Source: a virus. From it: a stretch of DNA of 42,568 nt. Positions 21,949-34,167 of the stretch are shown here, in pieces (within the stretch, counting starts at the first letter, position 1; each line of letters starts with the position of its first letter). Position numbers and translations under genes: made by a program. The stretch spans positions 1 through 42,568 of the IMG/VR virus record IMGVR_UViG_3300020121_000039, one strand, 5' to 3'. Under the pieces are notes generated by a model. That model saw only the letters and a program-made list of their open reading frames with translations. It did no database searches and was not told where the DNA came from.

Positions 21949-24900
21949 ATGCCCGTAACTACCGCGTATTCCCCTATTTCGTATAGTGGCAATGGCGTTA
22001 CTAACGCCTTCCCAGTCACATTTCAATTTCAGCTGCAGACCGACCTCGTGGTCAGCACGCTGGTGGTGGCGACCAACGTCTCGACGCCGCTGGTTCTTGG
22101 CACCGACTACACGGTCTCGCCCACGCTCAATTCGCCGGCCAGCACGGGCACGGTCATCACGACGGTTCCGGTAGCGACTGGTAGCGACCTTGTCATCGCA
22201 CGTTCTACCCCGGTCACGCAGTTGACGACCTGGGTGCCGAACGATCCGAACCTGTCCACCAGCACGATGAACGCGGTGGACAAGCTGACGATGGAAATGC
22301 AGGAAATCGTCGGCGGCGGTGGCACGCTGCCTGACAGCGCGCTGGGCAATGGCACGTCCAGCACCGACACGTTCCTGCGCGGGGGCACGCCGCGGGCGTG
22401 GTCGAACACGCTGATTGGCCCTGCCGGTCCCGGCACCGTCCCTGTGGACGCGCAGTCACTGCTCAACTTGCAGGACGATGGCGTTGCAGCCATGCGTGTT
22501 TTGTCCGGCGCAACGGACATTAGCGCCTATCGCTTTGGCCACGACGGTGCAACGAATGCATGGGACATGCAATGGGGCTACGACCCGGTCACGGGCAAGA
22601 TCGGTTGGTATGCGTTCGGCGGAAGTGCGCTTGGCACGTTCGACTCCAGCGGCAACGTGGACATCACCGGCGCTTACACCGGCCACGCCGATGCGTCACT
22701 GATCGACAGTGGCACGATCGCGCTGGCACGGTTGGGCACGAATTCTCCGGCATCGAATCTGTTCCTCAACGGCGCGAACCAGTGGTCTGTTCCAGCCGGC
22801 GGCGGGGGCGTCAACACGACTACCACCGGCACGTTCGTCATCGCGGCTGTCAGTAGTTCGCAGACGGTTCCGGTAACAGCCACGACAGGTATTGCAAATG
22901 GCACGTACCTGCAAATCTCCGACGGCACGCATACCATCATCGGGCATGTGACGAACATCGCCAGCCTAAACCTGACCGTTGTCACGGACTCGATCGTCCT
23001 GGGTAGCGCGGGCAATACGATGGCTAGCGGCGCGGCGGTGCAGTTGTCCACCGTACCGGGACAGAACACGGTGCTGGTGTCGGACCTCGTCGTGACATCG
23101 ACGCCCGTCACCAATATCCATTTCCTCAACGGCAGTTCCGCAGGCGCCGCCGGCAAGTCGCATGTCACGTCCTATATCTCGTCCGTCGTCGCTGGCTTGG
23201 CCAACATCCAGGGCTACCTGGCATCCGGCGTCAGCATTGCCGAAGTCGTTTTCAATCCAGTGCCGGCGTTCCCCAGGACATTGGTGGCAGACGCCAGTTC
23301 TGGCGTGCCGCATGAAACTCTTACTGGCGCCGCCGGTACGCCGTTGCGCATTACCACCAATGGCCTCTCTGCGGATTTTGGACAGTTGCAGGCGGCTCTG
23401 GCTATTGCTGCGGGCACCATTACCCCGGCTCTGTTCAATGCCACGAATTCGCTGACCAACGGCTATGTGCCAAGCTACGACAGCGGCACGGGACATTTCA
23501 CTTGGGTTGCCAACGGCGGCAGCATCCCCGGCGGTGGCGATGCGGGCAAGTTCTTCCGCGGCGACAACACGTTCACGAACGTACTGGACATCAGTGCCGA
23601 CAGTGGCGCAGCCTCGATCGGGTTGACGCTCGCGCAGGGCGATGTCAACGGCGACTTCGGTAGCACCTTCGGCGGTGCCGTCAACGGCAGTTATGCCTTC
23701 TGGATCATGCAGAAGAAAACGGCAGGTGTATGGGGCACCCCGGCGACATTCTGCAACTACCAGATCGGCAGCGGCATCGACGCAGGCGTGCTGTCCGTGG
23801 GGGCGCCGTGGGTCAATCCCGACGGCACGAATGTCGAGCGGTTCTACGCCAATGGCCTGATGCGGACCAACGCGGGCCTGCGCAGCGTGTACGGCCCGCT
23901 GTCGCTGATCTATGAAATCGCGGCACCCGCCAGCCCGCTGACCATCGACCTCGTAAACGGTGCCTACCAGCGCATCAGCAGCCTGGGGTTGGCCCTGACG
24001 ATCGCTTTGGCCGACACGACGCCGCTGCCGACATCCGTGCGCTACGAGAGCGAACTGACGCTGGAACTGAATCTGTCGAGCCACGACATCACGTGGCCCG
24101 GTACGATCACTTGGGCCAATGGTGGGACGGGGCCGACCATTGCCAACAGCGGCTTGAACGCCACGGGCATCAATATCATCAAGTTGATTCGCCGACAGGG
24201 GCAGACACAGTGGATTGGTTACGAGAACCCGAACGTGGCTGGCGGCGGCACCGGAACGGTCACGTCGATCACGGCAGGTTCGGGCCTGTCCGGTGGAACC
24301 ATCACCACGTCCGGCACGATTGCGATTGGCGCGGCGGCCATCACCAGCACGATGTTCCAAAGCGGCGCGGTGGACAACAATGCGCTGGCCAGCGGCATCC
24401 AGATCAGCAAGCTGCTGGGCGCCGGCAGCAGCACGACGACGTTCCTGCGCAACGACGGGAACTGGGCAGTTCCTCCCGGCACCGGTGGCGGTGGCGGTGG
24501 CATCAGCCCGAACAGCCCCAATACGTGGACGGCGACACAGACGTACACCAGCGCGGGCGTTATTGTCTCTGCTGCGCTCAATACCTTTAGCAACACGAAC
24601 ACGTTCACGCCGCCGTCGTGGACCAATACGCTGGCAGGAACCGGGGTATCGACAGGCTACACCGATGGCAGCAGCGGTGCCAAGGAAGGTATCTCCAGCC
24701 GCATCTTCGACAACCATCTGACGGCCGACTACATCCCGATTTCGAGCTACCACGTTACCTATGCGAACCGCTCGAACGCATCGGGCAATGACCAGCACTA
24801 TTTCGACATCCGTGGAACTGCGGGACCATTGGGCAACTTCAGTATTGCCGACACGGCCATCACGCAATCGGCGAATGTCAACGGCGATAGCCGCGATGGC

Positions 24901-25803
24901 ATCTGGCTCAACTCGTGGGGTCCGTGCATTGTCTTTCAGTCCACGCCGGCCACGTACACGACAGACTCCACGACGACGACGCACAACTTCGCCAGCGGCA
25001 CAATCCGCGGTGGCGAGGTCAACTACGGCAATGCGTGGTCCGAACTGGGCTTCGTGGACGATCGCGGCCTGTCCAGCTTCTACTGCGGCATCGAATTCTT
25101 CCCCGACTGGCTGCCCGGTACGATTGCCGATTTCTACAGCGGCAGCCCGCCACCATTCCAGAAGTTCAATGCCCAGTGGGCTATAGCTATTGGTGGCGCG
25201 GCTCCTGGCACGCTGGGTGCTGCGCCGAAGAACTGGATCGGCCTGCTTGTCGGCAAGGATGGTATTGCGCCTGGCGGCTTGGCGCTCAACCTGCATGGCG
25301 GCACAGTATCCACGACGACTACGGGCACGTTCACGATGGCTGCCGTTGGCGCATCGCAGACGGTATCGGTCACGTCCACGTCGGGTATCAGCGCTACGGC
25401 CGGCAGTCTGACCGGCCTACAGATTAGTGATGGTACACACACGATCCAGGGCCATGTCACCAACATCGCCAGTCTTAATCTAACTGTCGTTACCGATTCC
25501 ATCATTGCCGGTACCGCGGGCAATACGATGGCCTCTGCTGCCATCGTGACAACGGCGATGGCTGCGGCCATCAACCTGCAGAACTACATGGGTACCGGCA
25601 TCAACTTTGCCGGCAGCGCAGGTGGTGCACCGGTAGGAACCGGTGGCGGCACGGCGGCTACCTTCACCAATACGGGCGCTCCGGCAATCACCCTTGCCGA
25701 TGATCAGTCGATCAAGTTCGGCAGCATCTGGTTGCGCGGGCATTCCAGCACGTTGCAGTACAGCACCAATGGTACTTCGTGGTCCACCTTGACGCTGCCG
25801 TAG
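21949..25803 (+). CDS. Tail fibre protein (1284 aa)
   Basis: The N-terminal 130 residues ([63 protein letters not shown]) form the T7-type fibre adaptor that docks to the tail. The shaft contains fibre repeats ([25 protein letters not shown]), Gly-rich linkers and a domain of about 80 residues present twice (nucleotides 22815-23045 and 25312-25548). The end, [20 protein letters not shown], resembles fibre tip strands. ATG 21949 has GGAGG (21936-21940) eight bases upstream, so the open codons before it are excluded. It is the main host-recognition candidate. Confidence 0.93.
22815..23045 (+). repeat. Duplicated fibre domain, copy 1
   Basis: Within the tail fibre gene, this segment encodes [60 protein letters not shown]. 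The same order occurs again 2.5 kb downstream with scattered differences, so the domain was duplicated or acquired twice. Confidence 0.85.
25312..25548 (+). repeat. Duplicated fibre domain, copy 2
   Basis: This encodes [60 protein letters not shown]. The core [26 protein letters not shown] is almost identical to copy 1, while the segment before it has a three-residue insertion and differs more. It lies near the fibre tip. Confidence 0.85.
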
Positions 25804-30227: not shown

Positions 30228-30493
30228 TGCTCGAACCCTCCACGAAAGATGATCCCGTCGCACACCAGCTTGCGATCGGTAGTCCAGCGCATCGGCGTAC
30301 ACGGCGCATGCACCGCGACGTGATCGACCAGGAGTAGCGATGTGCCAGCAGCCGCGGCAAGCCTGCTGCAAGCGATGGCGAGCAGTCCGACGACCAGGGT
30401 TGCGGCGACCAGGCGCCACAACGTGCGCACGCTCAACAGCAGCGCGGCGCCGATGCTGAAACCGACGATGGCGATGAGGGTTACAGTGTCCAT
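30224..30493 (-). CDS. Small membrane protein (89 aa, two TM segments)
   Basis: ATG 30493 to TGA 30224. Two hydrophobic segments are seen at residues 4-21 (VTLIAIVGFSIGAALLLS) and 27-43 (RLVAATLVVGLLAIACS), followed by a soluble tail with two Cys. It overlaps the exonuclease gene end by 13 bases and the Lar fusion start by four. It could be an inner-membrane exclusion or lysis-timing protein, but nothing in the sequence decides this. Confidence 0.65.
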   Translation of the reverse strand: MDTVTLIAIVGFSIGAALLLSVRTLWRLVAATLVVGLLAIACSRLAAAAGTSLLLVDHVAVHAPCTPMRWTTDRKLVCDGIIFRGGFEQ

Positions 30494-31326
30494 GATGCGT
30501 CATACCTCTTGAGAGACTTCCAAAGGTCCAGCGCCTTACTGAAGACTTCCCAGCCATAGGCAATATCGTCTGCCGACCAGACGTGGCTAGCGACCTTGCC
30601 CGGATGCGTTCTGGACACGAAGATGTTGGCGCATTGTGTAGGCGAGAACAGTGGCGGGTCCATGTCGAATGTTTGGAACGGTCGAATGCCAAGACCCACC
30701 TGATACGCCGCCAGTTGCCAATGCTGATCCCACGCGAGTTTTTTTTGCTTGCCGTAGGCGTCTACCTCAGTGAAGTCGCCGTCGCGGCCTTTGTAATCAA
30801 CCACGATTCCGGTGGATGGCGAGTGCAGGTCAGTGGCGCCGCCGAAGCCAAGCGGATGAGCAAAGGTCTTCTCGCTGATCCAATCATCGACATCGGGGAA
30901 CAGGCGCTTGATTTCGGCCAGCGTGGCAGCGACATGCGGCACAAAGCGTTCAGGATAATCACGCCCATCAAAATGCGCTTCAATGGCGCGATGGATGCGC
31001 GTGCCTTCGGCGGCTGCGTTCAATGCCTGCTGCTTGCTGTCATCCATCACGCGCGCCAGATAGACCTCCTCCGGCTCGTCGGGAATTCGCGGCAGCGTAA
31101 GCGCCGACAGGATACCTTGTTCCACTTTCCACTTTTCCAGCGCCGGCTTGGCGATGACTGTCAGAACAGTCGTCACGCTCGGCACCAGTTTCAGGCCACG
31201 ATCCCAGCGCAGGTTGATGCCACGCTCGCCACCGGACTTGTTCGGGACCGTGTAGCATGGCGATCCATCACGGCGATACCAGTGGCCCGATTCGGCATCG
31301 GCTTTCGGTGCGATGACGGCGCTCAC
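30481..31326 (-). CDS. PD-(D/E)XK phage exonuclease
   Basis: A 281-aa nuclease of the RecB/Cas4/lambda-exonuclease-like superfamily. Motifs from the GTG start are EGTRIHRAIE (107-116), Glu 152 in the SEKTF segment, GFGGATD with Asp 166, and VVDYKGRD with Asp 177 and Lys 179, then a QLAAYQ-type helix (Gln, Tyr), the usual motif IV. I choose GTG 31326 because GGAGGT lies seven bases upstream and GTGA overlaps the preceding stop; an ATG at 31365 would overlap the preceding gene by 43 bases. With the SSB-like protein upstream (31756-32202) it forms a likely recombination or DNA-processing module. Confidence 0.88.
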   Translation of the reverse strand: MSAVIAPKADAESGHWYRRDGSPCYTVPNKSGGERGINLRWDRGLKLVPSVTTVLTVIAKPALEKWKVEQGILSALTLPRIPDEPEEVYLARVMDDSKQQALNAAAEGTRIHRAIEAHFDGRDYPERFVPHVAATLAEIKRLFPDVDDWISEKTFAHPLGFGGATDLHSPSTGIVVDYKGRDGDFTEVDAYGKQKKLAWDQHWQLAAYQVGLGIRPFQTFDMDPPLFSPTQCANIFVSRTHPGKVASHVWSADDIAYGWEVFSKALDLWKSLKRYDASWTL

Positions 31327-31538
31327 GACTTCACCTCCGCTGCGCGATAGGGCGTACTTCTCCATTCCTCGATCCTGTCAATGTGATAGTCACACTTGAA
31401 CACGCCGATGCGCGCGACCTTCACTCGGGACTGGACCTCCTTGATCTTAGACTGCAGATGATCCTCGCTGTCGCAGGTCAGTATCTCCGGCTTGGCGGAA
31501 TCCTGTTCGTAGTTGACGCGCAAAAGGGCGTAGCACAT
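31323..31538 (-). CDS. Hypothetical protein upstream of exonuclease (71 aa)
   Basis: ATG 31538 overlaps the previous stop in TGATG. A longer frame back to 31688 exists but its first 50 residues are a shadow of the 57-aa gene upstream. The protein reads MCYALLRVNYEQDSAKPEIL and then a basic helical part (HLQSKIKEVQSRVKVARIGV). No family recognised; tight coupling to the exonuclease suggests a linked role. Confidence 0.68.
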   Translation of the reverse strand: MCYALLRVNYEQDSAKPEILTCDSEDHLQSKIKEVQSRVKVARIGVFKCDYHIDRIEEWRSTPYRAAEVKS

Positions 31539-31711
31539 CACCCTGCAACCAGTTTCCGGCGCTTGATTTCCTTTAGCACGGTCTTGTAATCCATCAGGCC
31601 ATGCGTCCATTTCTGCATCAGCGTGTCGATCTTCAACTCGTCTGCGGTTGACTTCCGAGACGCCCAGCCGTTGCTGGTTTGTTCCCATGTTCTACCATTG
31701 CCGTTTGGCAT
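31538..31711 (-). CDS. Small basic protein (57 aa)
   Basis: ATG 31711 to TGA 31538-31540. The product begins MPNGNGRTWEQTSNGWASRK and ends KTVLKEIKRRKLVAG. It is basic and partly helical. Its stop overlaps the start of the next gene (TGATG). GGAGAACATC upstream provides a ribosome-binding site. It lies between the SSB-like and exonuclease genes, so a DNA-binding or annealing cofactor is a possibility, without direct support. Confidence 0.68.
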   Translation of the reverse strand: MPNGNGRTWEQTSNGWASRKSTADELKIDTLMQKWTHGLMDYKTVLKEIKRRKLVAG

Positions 31712-31755
31712 GATGTTCTCCAGAAAGTGCGGCGCGTCCGTGCGCCAGTGGTCGA

Positions 31756-32202
31756 TCAGAACGGGATTTCGTCGTCGAAGTCCGGCCCTGCAGAAGCAGA
31801 CACCGTGGCCTTGGGATTGCGCGGACGACCGGCTTCCTGATCTGCTGCGGCATCTTCCGGGTCAGCAGCAGGCTTGGCCGCAGCCTTACCCTTGGGCGCA
31901 CGCAGGCGCAGCCCACCGACGACTTCGCCGCCGAATTCGACATCTTCGTCCACATAGACGACCATCTGCTTGCCGATCCAGCCGTCGCTGTCGTCGCCGT
32001 GCGCCTTGGCGATGCGCTTCAAGTTCGTCGAGTTCAGCACCATCGGCTTGTCGAGTTCGGCAAAGACAGCGACCCACTTCATGTCGCCGGACTGGTTCTG
32101 GCTCACATCTGCCGTGGTCAGCTTCTTGATCGTGACCAGGACCGGCTCGGGTACGTCGGACTGCTTGATGTACTTGCTCGGGAGCATTTCGGAGATTTTC
32201 AT
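31756..32202 (-). CDS. ssb: Single-stranded DNA-binding protein-like
   Basis: A 148-aa protein. Residues 1-105 form a beta-rich body (MKISEMLPSKYIKQSDVPEP, VLVTIKKLTTADVSQNQSGD, GWIGKQMVVYVDEDVEFGG), then a disordered Ala/Lys/Pro linker, then the acidic tip DFDDEIPF. The D-D-x-I-P-F end is the hallmark of bacterial and phage SSB tails that bind partner proteins. The body does not show a textbook OB-fold motif, so it belongs to a divergent phage SSB family. It has AGGAA about 10 bases before ATG 32202. Works in DNA replication or recombination with the exonuclease downstream. Confidence 0.8.
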   Translation of the reverse strand: MKISEMLPSKYIKQSDVPEPVLVTIKKLTTADVSQNQSGDMKWVAVFAELDKPMVLNSTNLKRIAKAHGDDSDGWIGKQMVVYVDEDVEFGGEVVGGLRLRAPKGKAAAKPAADPEDAAADQEAGRPRNPKATVSASAGPDFDDEIPF

Positions 32203-32242
32203 GTGCGAGTTCCTGTGTGAGTTTGAGTTGAGTTTAGTTGGT

Positions 32243-32264
32243 TGCCCGGATTAAGCGCCGGGCA
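32243..32264. other. Hairpin in gap upstream of SSB-like gene
   Basis: TGCCCGG (32243-32249) and CCGGGCA (32258-32264) form a perfect 7-bp stem with an 8-base loop in the 108-base gap (32203-32310) between the membrane-protein gene and the SSB-like gene. On the minus strand, where transcription runs, no T-run follows, so it is more likely an RNA-processing or attenuating structure than a full terminator. Confidence 0.5.
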
Positions 32265-32310
32265 CGCTGCGTTGCACTTCATCAAGGGGAGTTTTGCGTT
32301 GGCGTTCGTG

Positions 32311-32553
32311 TCAGCGTCTATCCTCCTTTTTGCGAAGTTCATGGGCGTCACCAAAAACGAATTGACTCGGAACCCATTTGTCTTCAACCTTGGCGTAGCA
32401 GCCAAAGCTGTACTTCGTTTCGTAACCTGTTGCGGCCTCGAAGCCTTTGCAGGTTGCGTAATCGCCACCTATTACGACCAATGCAATGAAGCCAAAAATC
32501 ATTCCGACCATAACCGCAATCGGTAGACCAAATTCACGAAATTCTTGCCACAT
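32311..32553 (-). CDS. Small membrane protein (80 aa)
   Basis: ATG 32553 to stop 32311. A hydrophobic segment at residues 10-30 (LPIAVMVGMIFGFIALVVIGG) is followed by a soluble part with two Cys (ATCKGFEAATGYETKYSFGC) and a charged tail. The start overlaps the previous stop in TGATG. Probably an inner-membrane anchored early protein; the function is unknown. Confidence 0.68.
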   Translation of the reverse strand: MWQEFREFGLPIAVMVGMIFGFIALVVIGGDYATCKGFEAATGYETKYSFGCYAKVEDKWVPSQFVFGDAHELRKKEDRR

Positions 32554-32798
32554 CAGTCTTCTCCACGTCCGTTGATACAGGGTTGATGCTCGACGGCTTC
32601 CGCCGCAGCATAGCGTTCGTTGTCGTCCTGCGGCACCTTGCCGAACAGGCGCAGGTAGGTTTCTTCCAGCGCACGGTCACGCCTCTCATCTTCCGTGGGG
32701 CCGTACAACTGCTGCAGCAACACAGGCGTCACGGTGCGGACCTTGTGGCTTGCATGCCGCTGTTCCCAGTCGTGTTGCGACTTGTTGAAGGATTTCAT
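32553..32798 (-). CDS. Charged hypothetical protein (81 aa)
   Basis: ATG 32798 to stop 32553. The sequence is rich in Glu, Arg and Gln (GPTEDERRDRALEETYLRLF) and helical. It overlaps both neighbours by one to four bases. No family recognised. Confidence 0.62.
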   Translation of the reverse strand: MKSFNKSQHDWEQRHASHKVRTVTPVLLQQLYGPTEDERRDRALEETYLRLFGKVPQDDNERYAAAEAVEHQPCINGRGED

Positions 32799-32965
32799 GC
32801 GTGATCCTCATAATGCGCCCCGACCAGCAGGATCAGCGCCATGCCGACGATGCCGACGATGCTGGCGACAACGAAGTCCGTCTGCGCTGTGTTGTAGCAG
32901 GCGACGACAAGAATGGAAGCAATCAATCCGATGAATCCTGCTGCCTGGCGTTCGTTCAGTTCCAT
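32795..32965 (-). CDS. Small two-TM membrane protein (56 aa)
   Basis: ATG 32965 overlaps the previous stop in TGATG, so the open codons upstream of it are ignored. Two hydrophobic segments (AGFIGLIASILVVACY at 9-24; VVASIVGIVGMALILLVGA at 31-49) are joined by a short NTAQTDF loop. The hairpin topology resembles small holins or exclusion proteins, but the gene lies in the early operon far from the endolysin. Confidence 0.65.
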   Translation of the reverse strand: MELNERQAAGFIGLIASILVVACYNTAQTDFVVASIVGIVGMALILLVGAHYEDHA

Positions 32966-33351
32966 CACAGCCACCCGTTTGCGAGGCCAGCTTCGTGCCA
33001 CTTGGCGATGACTTCGGCGTGGGTGTGGGTATTGTTATAAGTGACGATGTCATGCATGGCCCTCGACAAGGCGCAATAAACTTTTATATGCCGCTTATCG
33101 CTATGATCACGGTTGACCAACATGAGGGATGCGCCATGCGAACAGTACTGATCGCGTCCATCTCTTACCCGGTGAGTGGCGCCCTGACACCAGTCGCGCT
33201 CATCCGCAATCAGCGCCAGCGCCTTGCGGAACAGCACGCCTTCCGGGCTATTGAATCGCGGATCGGCCGGGACTTCGGTCGGCTGGAACTTGCGCAGCAG
33301 CGCATCGACTTCGCCTTGGATGCTGGACAGGGTTTCGTTTAGTTTGAGCAT
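32965..33351 (-). CDS. First gene of the leftward early operon (128 aa, unknown)
   Basis: ATG 33351 has AGGAG six bases upstream (about 33358-33362) and lies about 20 bases after the predicted start of the leftward transcript. The product begins MLKLNETLSSIQGEVDALLRKF and has WCQGATHRVRDGRDQYCSHG in the middle, with Cys and His that could bind metal. I recognise no family. Its promoter overlaps that of the Cro-like gene, so it is probably expressed immediately early. Confidence 0.7.
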   Translation of the reverse strand: MLKLNETLSSIQGEVDALLRKFQPTEVPADPRFNSPEGVLFRKALALIADERDWCQGATHRVRDGRDQYCSHGASLMLVNRDHSDKRHIKVYCALSRAMHDIVTYNNTHTHAEVIAKWHEAGLANGWL

Positions 33352-33362
33352 TTCAGTCTCCT

Positions 33363-33407
33363 GTTGACGTGGGATGCAAATTAACTTATATTCGCGGCCA
33401 TGTCAAC
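33363..33407. promoter_or_regulatory. Overlapping face-to-face promoters and inverted operator candidate
   Basis: Rightward promoter: -35 TTGACG (33364-33369), 17-base spacer, -10 TATATT (33387-33392), predicted transcript start at about 33399-33400, the A of the Cro-like ATG. Leftward promoter on the minus strand: -35 TTGACA (33406-33401), 17-base spacer, -10 TAATTT (33383-33378), start near 33371. The two -35 regions form a 10-bp inverted repeat, GTTGACGTGG (33363-33372) and the reverse complement GTTGACATGG (33398-33407), differing at one base. One protein bound there would cover both promoters. Confidence 0.75.
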
Positions 33408-33600
33408 TACTTTACACATCACGAAGGAACGGGCCATCGAACTGTTCGGCTCGCCGCTGGAACTGGCCGAAGCCCTTGGCATAGAACGTGCCAATGTGTA
33501 CATGTGGAAGGATGGCGAACCGATCCCGCAGAAGCATGCGCTGCATATCCGTTTCGTCTTGAAGCCGGAAGCGTTCAACGGGAAGCGCAATGCACGTTGA
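33400..33600 (+). CDS. Cro-like helix-turn-helix regulator
   Basis: A 66-aa protein whose core, AIELFGSPLELAEALGIERA, NVYMWKDGEPIPQKHALHIR, is the helix-turn-helix of small Cro/YdaS-type repressors (recognition helix at about ERANVYMWK). There is no Shine-Dalgarno sequence; the -10 box ends seven bases before the ATG, so the mRNA is probably leaderless, as for lambda cI made from its maintenance promoter. It is the first gene of the rightward middle operon and likely binds the inverted repeat in its own promoter. Confidence 0.85.
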   Translation: MSTTLHITKERAIELFGSPLELAEALGIERANVYMWKDGEPIPQKHALHIRFVLKPEAFNGKRNAR

Positions 33601-33829: not shown

Positions 33830-34167
33830 CTCTCACTGTATTTATCCCCATGAAGGCCAACGGCAACCAGAACAATCGTGAACACTGGGCGGCCAAGGCC
33901 AAGCGTGTCAAGAAGGAACGCAACTGGGCATGGCTGATGACGCCTATGGTCGAACTGCCGTGCGTGGTGACGCTGACGCACTGCGGCTCGCGGCAACTGG
34001 ACGACGACAACCTGCGCGCTTGCCTCAAGGCCGTCCGGGATGGCGTCGCGGATCGGCTGGGCGTGCCGGACAACGACCCCCGCGTGCAGTGGCGCTACGA
34101 CCAGGCCAAGTGCAAGCGTGTTGACGTTGGCGTGCGCATCGAATTGGAGAAGGTGGCGTGCCTATAG
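33826..34167 (+). CDS. rusA: RusA-type Holliday junction resolvase
   Basis: The 113-aa product has FIPMKANGNQNNREHWAAKA at the start and the RusA active-site region QLDDDNLRACLKAVRDGVAD, RLGVPDNDPRVQW (Asp 59, Asp 61, Lys 68, Asp 82/84), matching the D..D..K..D pattern of this family. It resolves four-way junctions, which in phages removes branches before packaging. ATG 33826 is in ATGA overlap with the previous gene. The frame is open upstream but only as shadow. Confidence 0.92.
   Translation: MTLTVFIPMKANGNQNNREHWAAKAKRVKKERNWAWLMTPMVELPCVVTLTHCGSRQLDDDNLRACLKAVRDGVADRLGVPDNDPRVQWRYDQAKCKRVDVGVRIELEKVACL

What the first reader, a model, noticed from the sequence alone, without database searches (positions are those of the whole stretch)
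33352..33407. Minimal two-way genetic switch with a leaderless Cro-like gene in a phage without integrase
Two promoters with 17-base spacers face each other and overlap fully within about 45 bp. Their -35 boxes form the inverted repeat GTTGACRTGG, so one dimer or pair of dimers can shut both. The rightward -10 is seven bases before the ATG of the Cro-like protein and there is no ribosome-binding site, predicting leaderless mRNA. A lambda-like switch normally accompanies an integrase and a CI repressor; neither is visible here. The switch may time early versus middle expression in a lytic phage, or support a non-integrating (plasmid or pseudolysogenic) state.
Basis: partly seen in the sequence, partly recalled or inferred. 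Interest (0 to 1): 0.78.

Follow-up and report, generated by a model that had tools for sequence, protein, structure and literature searches.

The report
Cro-only overlapping divergent early promoters
In this phage the two early promoters of a lambda-like control region sit on top of each other beside a Cro-type repressor gene whose mRNA probably starts at its own start codon; relatives indicate that the partner repressor gene (cI) has been lost, so it probably acts as a timer or brake on early genes rather than a lysis/lysogeny switch.

Summary
A rightward promoter (TTGACG-17-TATATT) ends 7 nt before the ATG of a 66-aa P22-Cro/YdaS-type gene with no ribosome-binding site. A weaker leftward promoter (TTGACA-17-TAATTT) overlaps it and feeds an SD-led operon. 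No cI, integrase, resolvase or ParA was found here or in a circularly permuted 43-kb relative.

Relatives change the interpretation. Leaderless cro geometry recurs in most IMG/VR relatives but in none of 13 more distant, SD-led cro genes; cro of phage PY54 is proven leaderless. The -35 inverted repeat is not the operator: only GTTGAC is conserved. A 16-bp palindrome matrix built solely from relatives ranks two window sites first and second of 42,553: 33401-33416, inside cro codons 1-6 and covering the leftward -35; and 33375-33390, under both -10 boxes. Rare codons spell the first site. In relatives cI lies between such operators, and a leftward PL-like promoter beyond cI carries the same kind of operator at its -35.

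Best reading: PL and PR of a lambdoid immunity region, overlapping after loss of cI, both shut by Cro. That is negative feedback and timing, not a bistable switch. All comparative; nothing was tested at the bench.

The parts
33364..33392 (+). Rightward (PR-like) promoter: TTGACG, 17 bp, TATATT
   Evidence: geometry conserved in relatives
33378..33406 (-). Leftward (PL-like) promoter: TTGACA 33406-33401, 17 bp, TAATTT 33383-33378
   Evidence: TATCTT at the same place in L002 and L003; PL-like counterparts in cI-bearing relatives
33375..33390 (.). Predicted operator O2, TGCAAATTAACTTATA, under both -10 boxes
   Evidence: rank 2 of 42,553 positions with a matrix from relatives only; both half-sites conserved among three divergent sequences
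33401..33416 (.). Predicted operator O1, TGTCAACTACTTTACA, over the leftward -35 and inside cro codons 1-6
   Evidence: rank 1 of 42,553; rare codons TCA, ACT, TTA
33400..33600 (+). cro-like gene, 66 aa, predicted leaderless
   Evidence: PF14549 P22_Cro 1.4e-8 and PF15943 YdaS 3.1e-7; family profile matches P22 Cro 1rzs, 1e-7; no SD
33352..33371 (-). Predicted 20-nt leader of the leftward mRNA with SD AGGAG (33360-33356)
   Evidence: SD at the same place in L002 and L003
32965..33351 (-). First gene of the leftward operon, 128 aa, DUF6197, not a recognisable repressor
   Evidence: PF19698 8.4e-8
30481..32964 (-). Rest of the leftward operon: small proteins and an exonuclease (294 aa), PL-operon-like
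   Evidence: phrog_298 exonuclease 2e-9; several genes have homologues in G001/L002
33590..41384 (+). Rightward operon: RusA-like resolvase, transglycosylase, HNH, VapE-type helicase

Best explanation
This is the relic core of a lambdoid immunity region that has lost cI. The leftward early promoter (PL-like, recombination genes) and the rightward early promoter (PR-like, cro and replication genes) now overlap within about 45 bp. RNA polymerase can occupy only one at a time. The rightward mRNA begins at the cro AUG and is translated leaderlessly; the leftward mRNA has a normal SD leader. As Cro accumulates it binds O1 (33401-33416: the leftward -35 and the first cro codons) and O2 (33375-33390: both -10 boxes), shutting both early operons. 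This is negative feedback that times and limits early expression, not bistability. Shown: the sequence elements, their conservation, the operator-matrix ranking, and absence of detectable cI and integrase. Inferred: transcript starts, Cro binding, order of events and the deletion history.
For: Leaderless: in 11 of 13 IMG/VR members including the window (L004 with its second ATG as start; L015 and L019 weaker, 8/12) a promoter scoring 8-10/12 ends its -10 6-8 nt before the ATG, and there is no SD of 4/6 or more except in L004, where AGGGGG lies inside the operator/-10 region. In 13 more distant cro genes no promoter above 7/12 sits there, the best promoter lies 23-42 nt upstream, and SD scores are 4-6/6. 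PY54 cro (RACE, PMC4488713) and lambda cI (reported leaderless, cited in PMC8630535) both have a 6-nt gap. Operators: a matrix from 18 sites in 7 relatives ranks O1 first and O2 second; both top two fall at this locus in 4 of 2000 column-permuted controls. O2 lies at -25 from the ATG, as in relatives (-23 to -26). Codons 2, 3 and 5 are TCA, ACT, TTA (3.6%, 7.0%, 1.3% of their synonymous codons here) in all three clade members. cI loss: L004, L012-L016 and L018 carry an HTH repressor divergent from cro, and most have further operators beyond cI, several ending in a leftward TTGACA (L004, L013, L014, L016). Window and G001 have no S24, HTH_3, integrase, resolvase or ParA hit. They are circularly permuted relative to each other, so it is unlikely that contig ends hide a cI.
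Against: No transcript or binding data. Matrix sites were picked by eye in the relatives, and each relative's Cro may differ in specificity. O2 is imperfect. The leftward -10 in the window is weak (3/6). L012 and L014 do not show the leaderless promoter clearly, and L015 and L019 only weakly. The window clade has three sequences, one a 4.2-kb fragment. The deletion history is read from present-day layouts, not from a tree. A repressor with no recognisable HTH or S24 domain cannot be excluded.
Confidence: 0.66

Rival explanations
1. A real two-way switch: Cro represses leftward transcription, and an unrecognised leftward product (such as the DUF6197 protein) represses or activates in return, giving two stable states.
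For: Overlapping divergent promoters exclude each other; many leftward genes have no assigned function.
Against: The first leftward gene differs in window, L002 and L003, so it is unlikely to be a conserved partner; no HTH_3 or S24 in the record.
Confidence: 0.1
2. The 45-bp inverted repeat GTTGACRTGG is itself the operator.
For: Two exact copies against 0.32 expected, in a meaningful place.
Against: The flank beyond GTTGAC is not conserved at the rightward copy in L002 or L003; GTTGAC is explained by two -35 boxes plus an operator half-site; 16-bp palindromes in the same register as relatives explain the region better.
Confidence: 0.08
3. Only the rightward promoter matters; the leftward promoter is a chance by-product of the Met-Ser-Thr codons and an operator half-site.
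For: The leftward -10 is 3/6 in the window; TTGACA overlaps both coding and operator sequence.
Against: TATCTT at the right spacing in L002 and L003, an SD-led leftward gene at the right distance in all three, and no other leftward promoter in the tool's scan near that operon's start.
Confidence: 0.16

Closest known systems
Yersinia phage PY54 cro/cI switch (N15-like telomere phages)
   Same: Helical Cro-type protein; cro mRNA shown leaderless by RACE; divergent control region; prophage not integrated (PMC4488713)
   Different: PY54 has cI; its Cro binds one site (OR3) and is thought not to repress itself; 6-nt gap; promoters not overlapping within 45 bp
Lambda / P22 immunity region (OL-cI-OR-cro)
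   Same: Cro-family protein, palindromic operators on early promoters, divergent early operons with recombination leftward and replication rightward
   Different: cI absent; PL and PR overlap; cro leaderless; one operator inside the cro coding sequence
YdaS/RacR and YdaS/PaaR2 modules of E. coli prophages
   Same: Same Pfam family for the Cro-like protein; YdaS shown to act like Cro (PMC8630535)
   Different: Those have a CI-like partner; Rac ydaS has a leader with a weak SD
Pseudomonas phage AH02 and Pantoea phage PdC23
   Same: Cro-like gene with a divergent leftward early operon and no HTH_3 repressor or tyrosine integrase detected; AH02 was described as lytic (PMC8567786)
   Different: Intergenic regions of 145 and 450 bp; cro has an SD leader

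Membership tests
P22_Cro / YdaS family repressor | Significant match to the curated family model | tested here: met
   PF14549 34.8 bits (cut-off 30.2), PF15943 30.6 (cut-off 30); P22 Cro 1rzs 1e-7 by family profile
P22_Cro / YdaS family repressor | Helical HTH fold | tested here: inconclusive
   Five helices predicted, mean pLDDT 76.5, pTM 0.57: consistent, moderate confidence; not compared with a structure library
Lambdoid lysis/lysogeny switch | cI-type repressor gene divergent from cro | tested here: not met
Lambdoid lysis/lysogeny switch | Integrase or other lysogeny module | tested here: not met
Lambdoid lysis/lysogeny switch | Cro-type operators on the early promoters | tested here: met
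   by sequence only:
Lambdoid lysis/lysogeny switch | Two stable expression states | not testable with these tools
   needs a reporter assay
Leaderless mRNA | Promoter geometry placing +1 at the start codon, no SD | tested here: met
Leaderless mRNA | Mapped 5' end at AUG | not testable with these tools
   needs RACE or dRNA-seq

The most novel reading that the evidence does not exclude
Loss of cI repeatedly turns lambdoid immunity regions into compact Cro-only early controllers. In this clade the controller (leaderless cro plus shared operators) is a selected unit joined to exchangeable leftward operons: cro is 97.5% identical in DNA to that of L002, while the 300 bp upstream of the promoter are 27% identical and the promoter/operator elements between them are kept.
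Probability: 0.35. Interest if true: 0.65.

Novelty: new variant of a known kind. Interest (0 to 1): 0.5.

Why it matters
It gives a natural test of what Cro does when CI is absent, and a concrete picture of how a temperate control region may decay into a lytic timer. It also suggests that leaderless cro mRNAs, proven in one phage, are common in a whole branch of Cro proteins, with one operator written into the first codons of the gene.

Tried and rejected
The -35 inverted repeat as operator: not conserved. Leftward promoter as a cI promoter: no repressor downstream, and relatives show PL-like promoters with the same operator register. Searching the phage collection with the window's own Cro protein, or by near DNA identity, found nothing. 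The first genome-contig scan found no relative; the second found one, L034, a contig of the same length and range as L018. One tblastn query was typed with one residue different from L016 (FGS for FES); it was used only to collect distant Cro genes. One coordinate (L002 leftward) was off by 13 nt, so its SD value there is not valid; the promoter found is the same as. A reverse transcriptase (BPP-1-like diversity element) was looked for and not found.

Full report
What is there. The rightward promoter TTGACG-17-TATATT (33364-33392) stands 7 nt before the ATG (33400) of a 66-aa gene. The tool's scan found it at 10/12. On the other strand TTGACA (33406-33401), 17 bp and TAATTT (33383-33378) precede a 20-nt leader with AGGAG and the ATG at 33351 of a 128-aa DUF6197 gene. 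The two promoters are divergent and overlap, so their predicted starts lie about 28 bp apart. The leftward -10 is weak here but reads TATCTT in the two closest relatives. The repeat GTTGACRTGG is real, with two exact copies against 0.32 expected.

Setting. The record is a 42.6-kb linear IMG/VR contig of a podophage-like virus; its portal protein is nearest to those of Stenotrophomonas phages BUCT708/709 and Burkholderia phage BcepC6B. Leftward genes include an exonuclease. Rightward genes include a RusA-like resolvase, a transglycosylase, an HNH nuclease and a VapE-type helicase. The 66-aa protein passes the cut-offs of P22_Cro and YdaS, its family profile matches P22 Cro in the PDB, and its model is mainly helical at moderate confidence.

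Is cI or an integrase missing? Six-frame searches of the window and of the 43.5-kb relative G001 found no Peptidase_S24, HTH_3, tyrosine integrase, serine resolvase or ParA-like domain. The two contigs are colinear but circularly permuted: the window's ends fall inside G001, and G001's ends fall inside the window. Missing ends are therefore an unlikely explanation.

Leaderless cro. Relatives were gathered from IMG/VR. In most of them the promoter ends 6-8 nt before the cro ATG and there is no SD. In thirteen more distant cro genes from annotated phages the best promoter lies 23-42 nt upstream and an SD is present. L012 and L014 do not fit clearly, and L015 and L019 fit weakly. L004 fits if its second ATG is the start; its AGGGGG lies in the operator. 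Two transcripts reported as leaderless, PY54 cro (RACE, PMC4488713) and lambda cI (cited in PMC8630535), show a 6-nt gap in the same measurement.

Operators. In the relatives I saw 16-bp palindromes of the form TRTMAR-N4-YTKAYA at about -70, -46 and -24 from cro. A symmetric matrix built from 18 such sites in seven relatives (six with a divergent repressor, plus L011), none from the window clade, ranks 33401-33416 first (17.8 bits) and 33375-33390 second (14.2) of 42,553 window positions. With permuted columns both top ranks fell here in 4 of 2000 trials. O2 is at -25, the register of the relatives. Among window, L002 and L003 the 47 bp upstream of cro are only 55-70% identical pairwise, but TGTTGAC, TGCAA and CTTATA are invariant. 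O1 lies in codons 1-6 of cro, spelled with TCA, ACT and TTA, which make up 3.6%, 7.0% and 1.3% of their synonymous codons in this genome. TTA lies outside the leftward -35, so the -35 alone does not explain it.

What the leftward promoter is. L004, L012-L016 and L018 have an HTH repressor divergent from cro (adjacency computed from locus coordinates). Beyond that gene L004, L013, L014, L015 and L016 have further operator sites; in L004, L013, L014 and L016 the operator ends in a leftward TTGACA (TTGCA in L015), the register that O1 has with the leftward -35 in the window. I therefore read the window's leftward promoter as PL-like. L011 is a possible intermediate: no cI was detected in its 7.6-kb contig, and it has separate leftward and rightward promoters, each with an operator at its -10. 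Isolated phages AH02 (described as lytic, PMC8567786) and PdC23 also carry cro with a divergent operon and no detected HTH_3 repressor or tyrosine integrase.

Mechanism. With one repressor acting on both promoters, the circuit is negative feedback. Polymerase exclusion adds alternation but no memory. The steps from Cro binding to timed shut-off are inferred. The history (cI lost, PL and PR brought together) is the simplest account of the layouts, but it was not tested on a tree.

Verdict. A correct and useful observation whose interpretation needs revising: not a two-way switch, but a compact Cro-only early controller with a predicted leaderless cro.

Noticed in passing
window 33053-33399 and L002: cro is 196/201 nt identical between window and L002, the 47 bp upstream 30/47 and the next 300 bp 81/300: an abrupt loss of similarity inside the promoter, as after recombination.
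   Followed up: partly
window 34111-34126: Third-best operator-like site, TGCAAGCGTGTTGACG (13.6 bits), inside the RusA-like gene; may be chance.
   Followed up: no
window 22908-23024 and 25416-25532: A 117-nt direct repeat at 72% identity within the 1290-aa tail-region gene.
   Followed up: no
L011 1-801: Fragment with separate PL-like and PR-like promoters and no detected cI, a possible intermediate.
   Followed up: partly
L017 and L019: Cro relatives with the leaderless geometry but no clear operator match, suggesting a different binding specificity.
   Followed up: no
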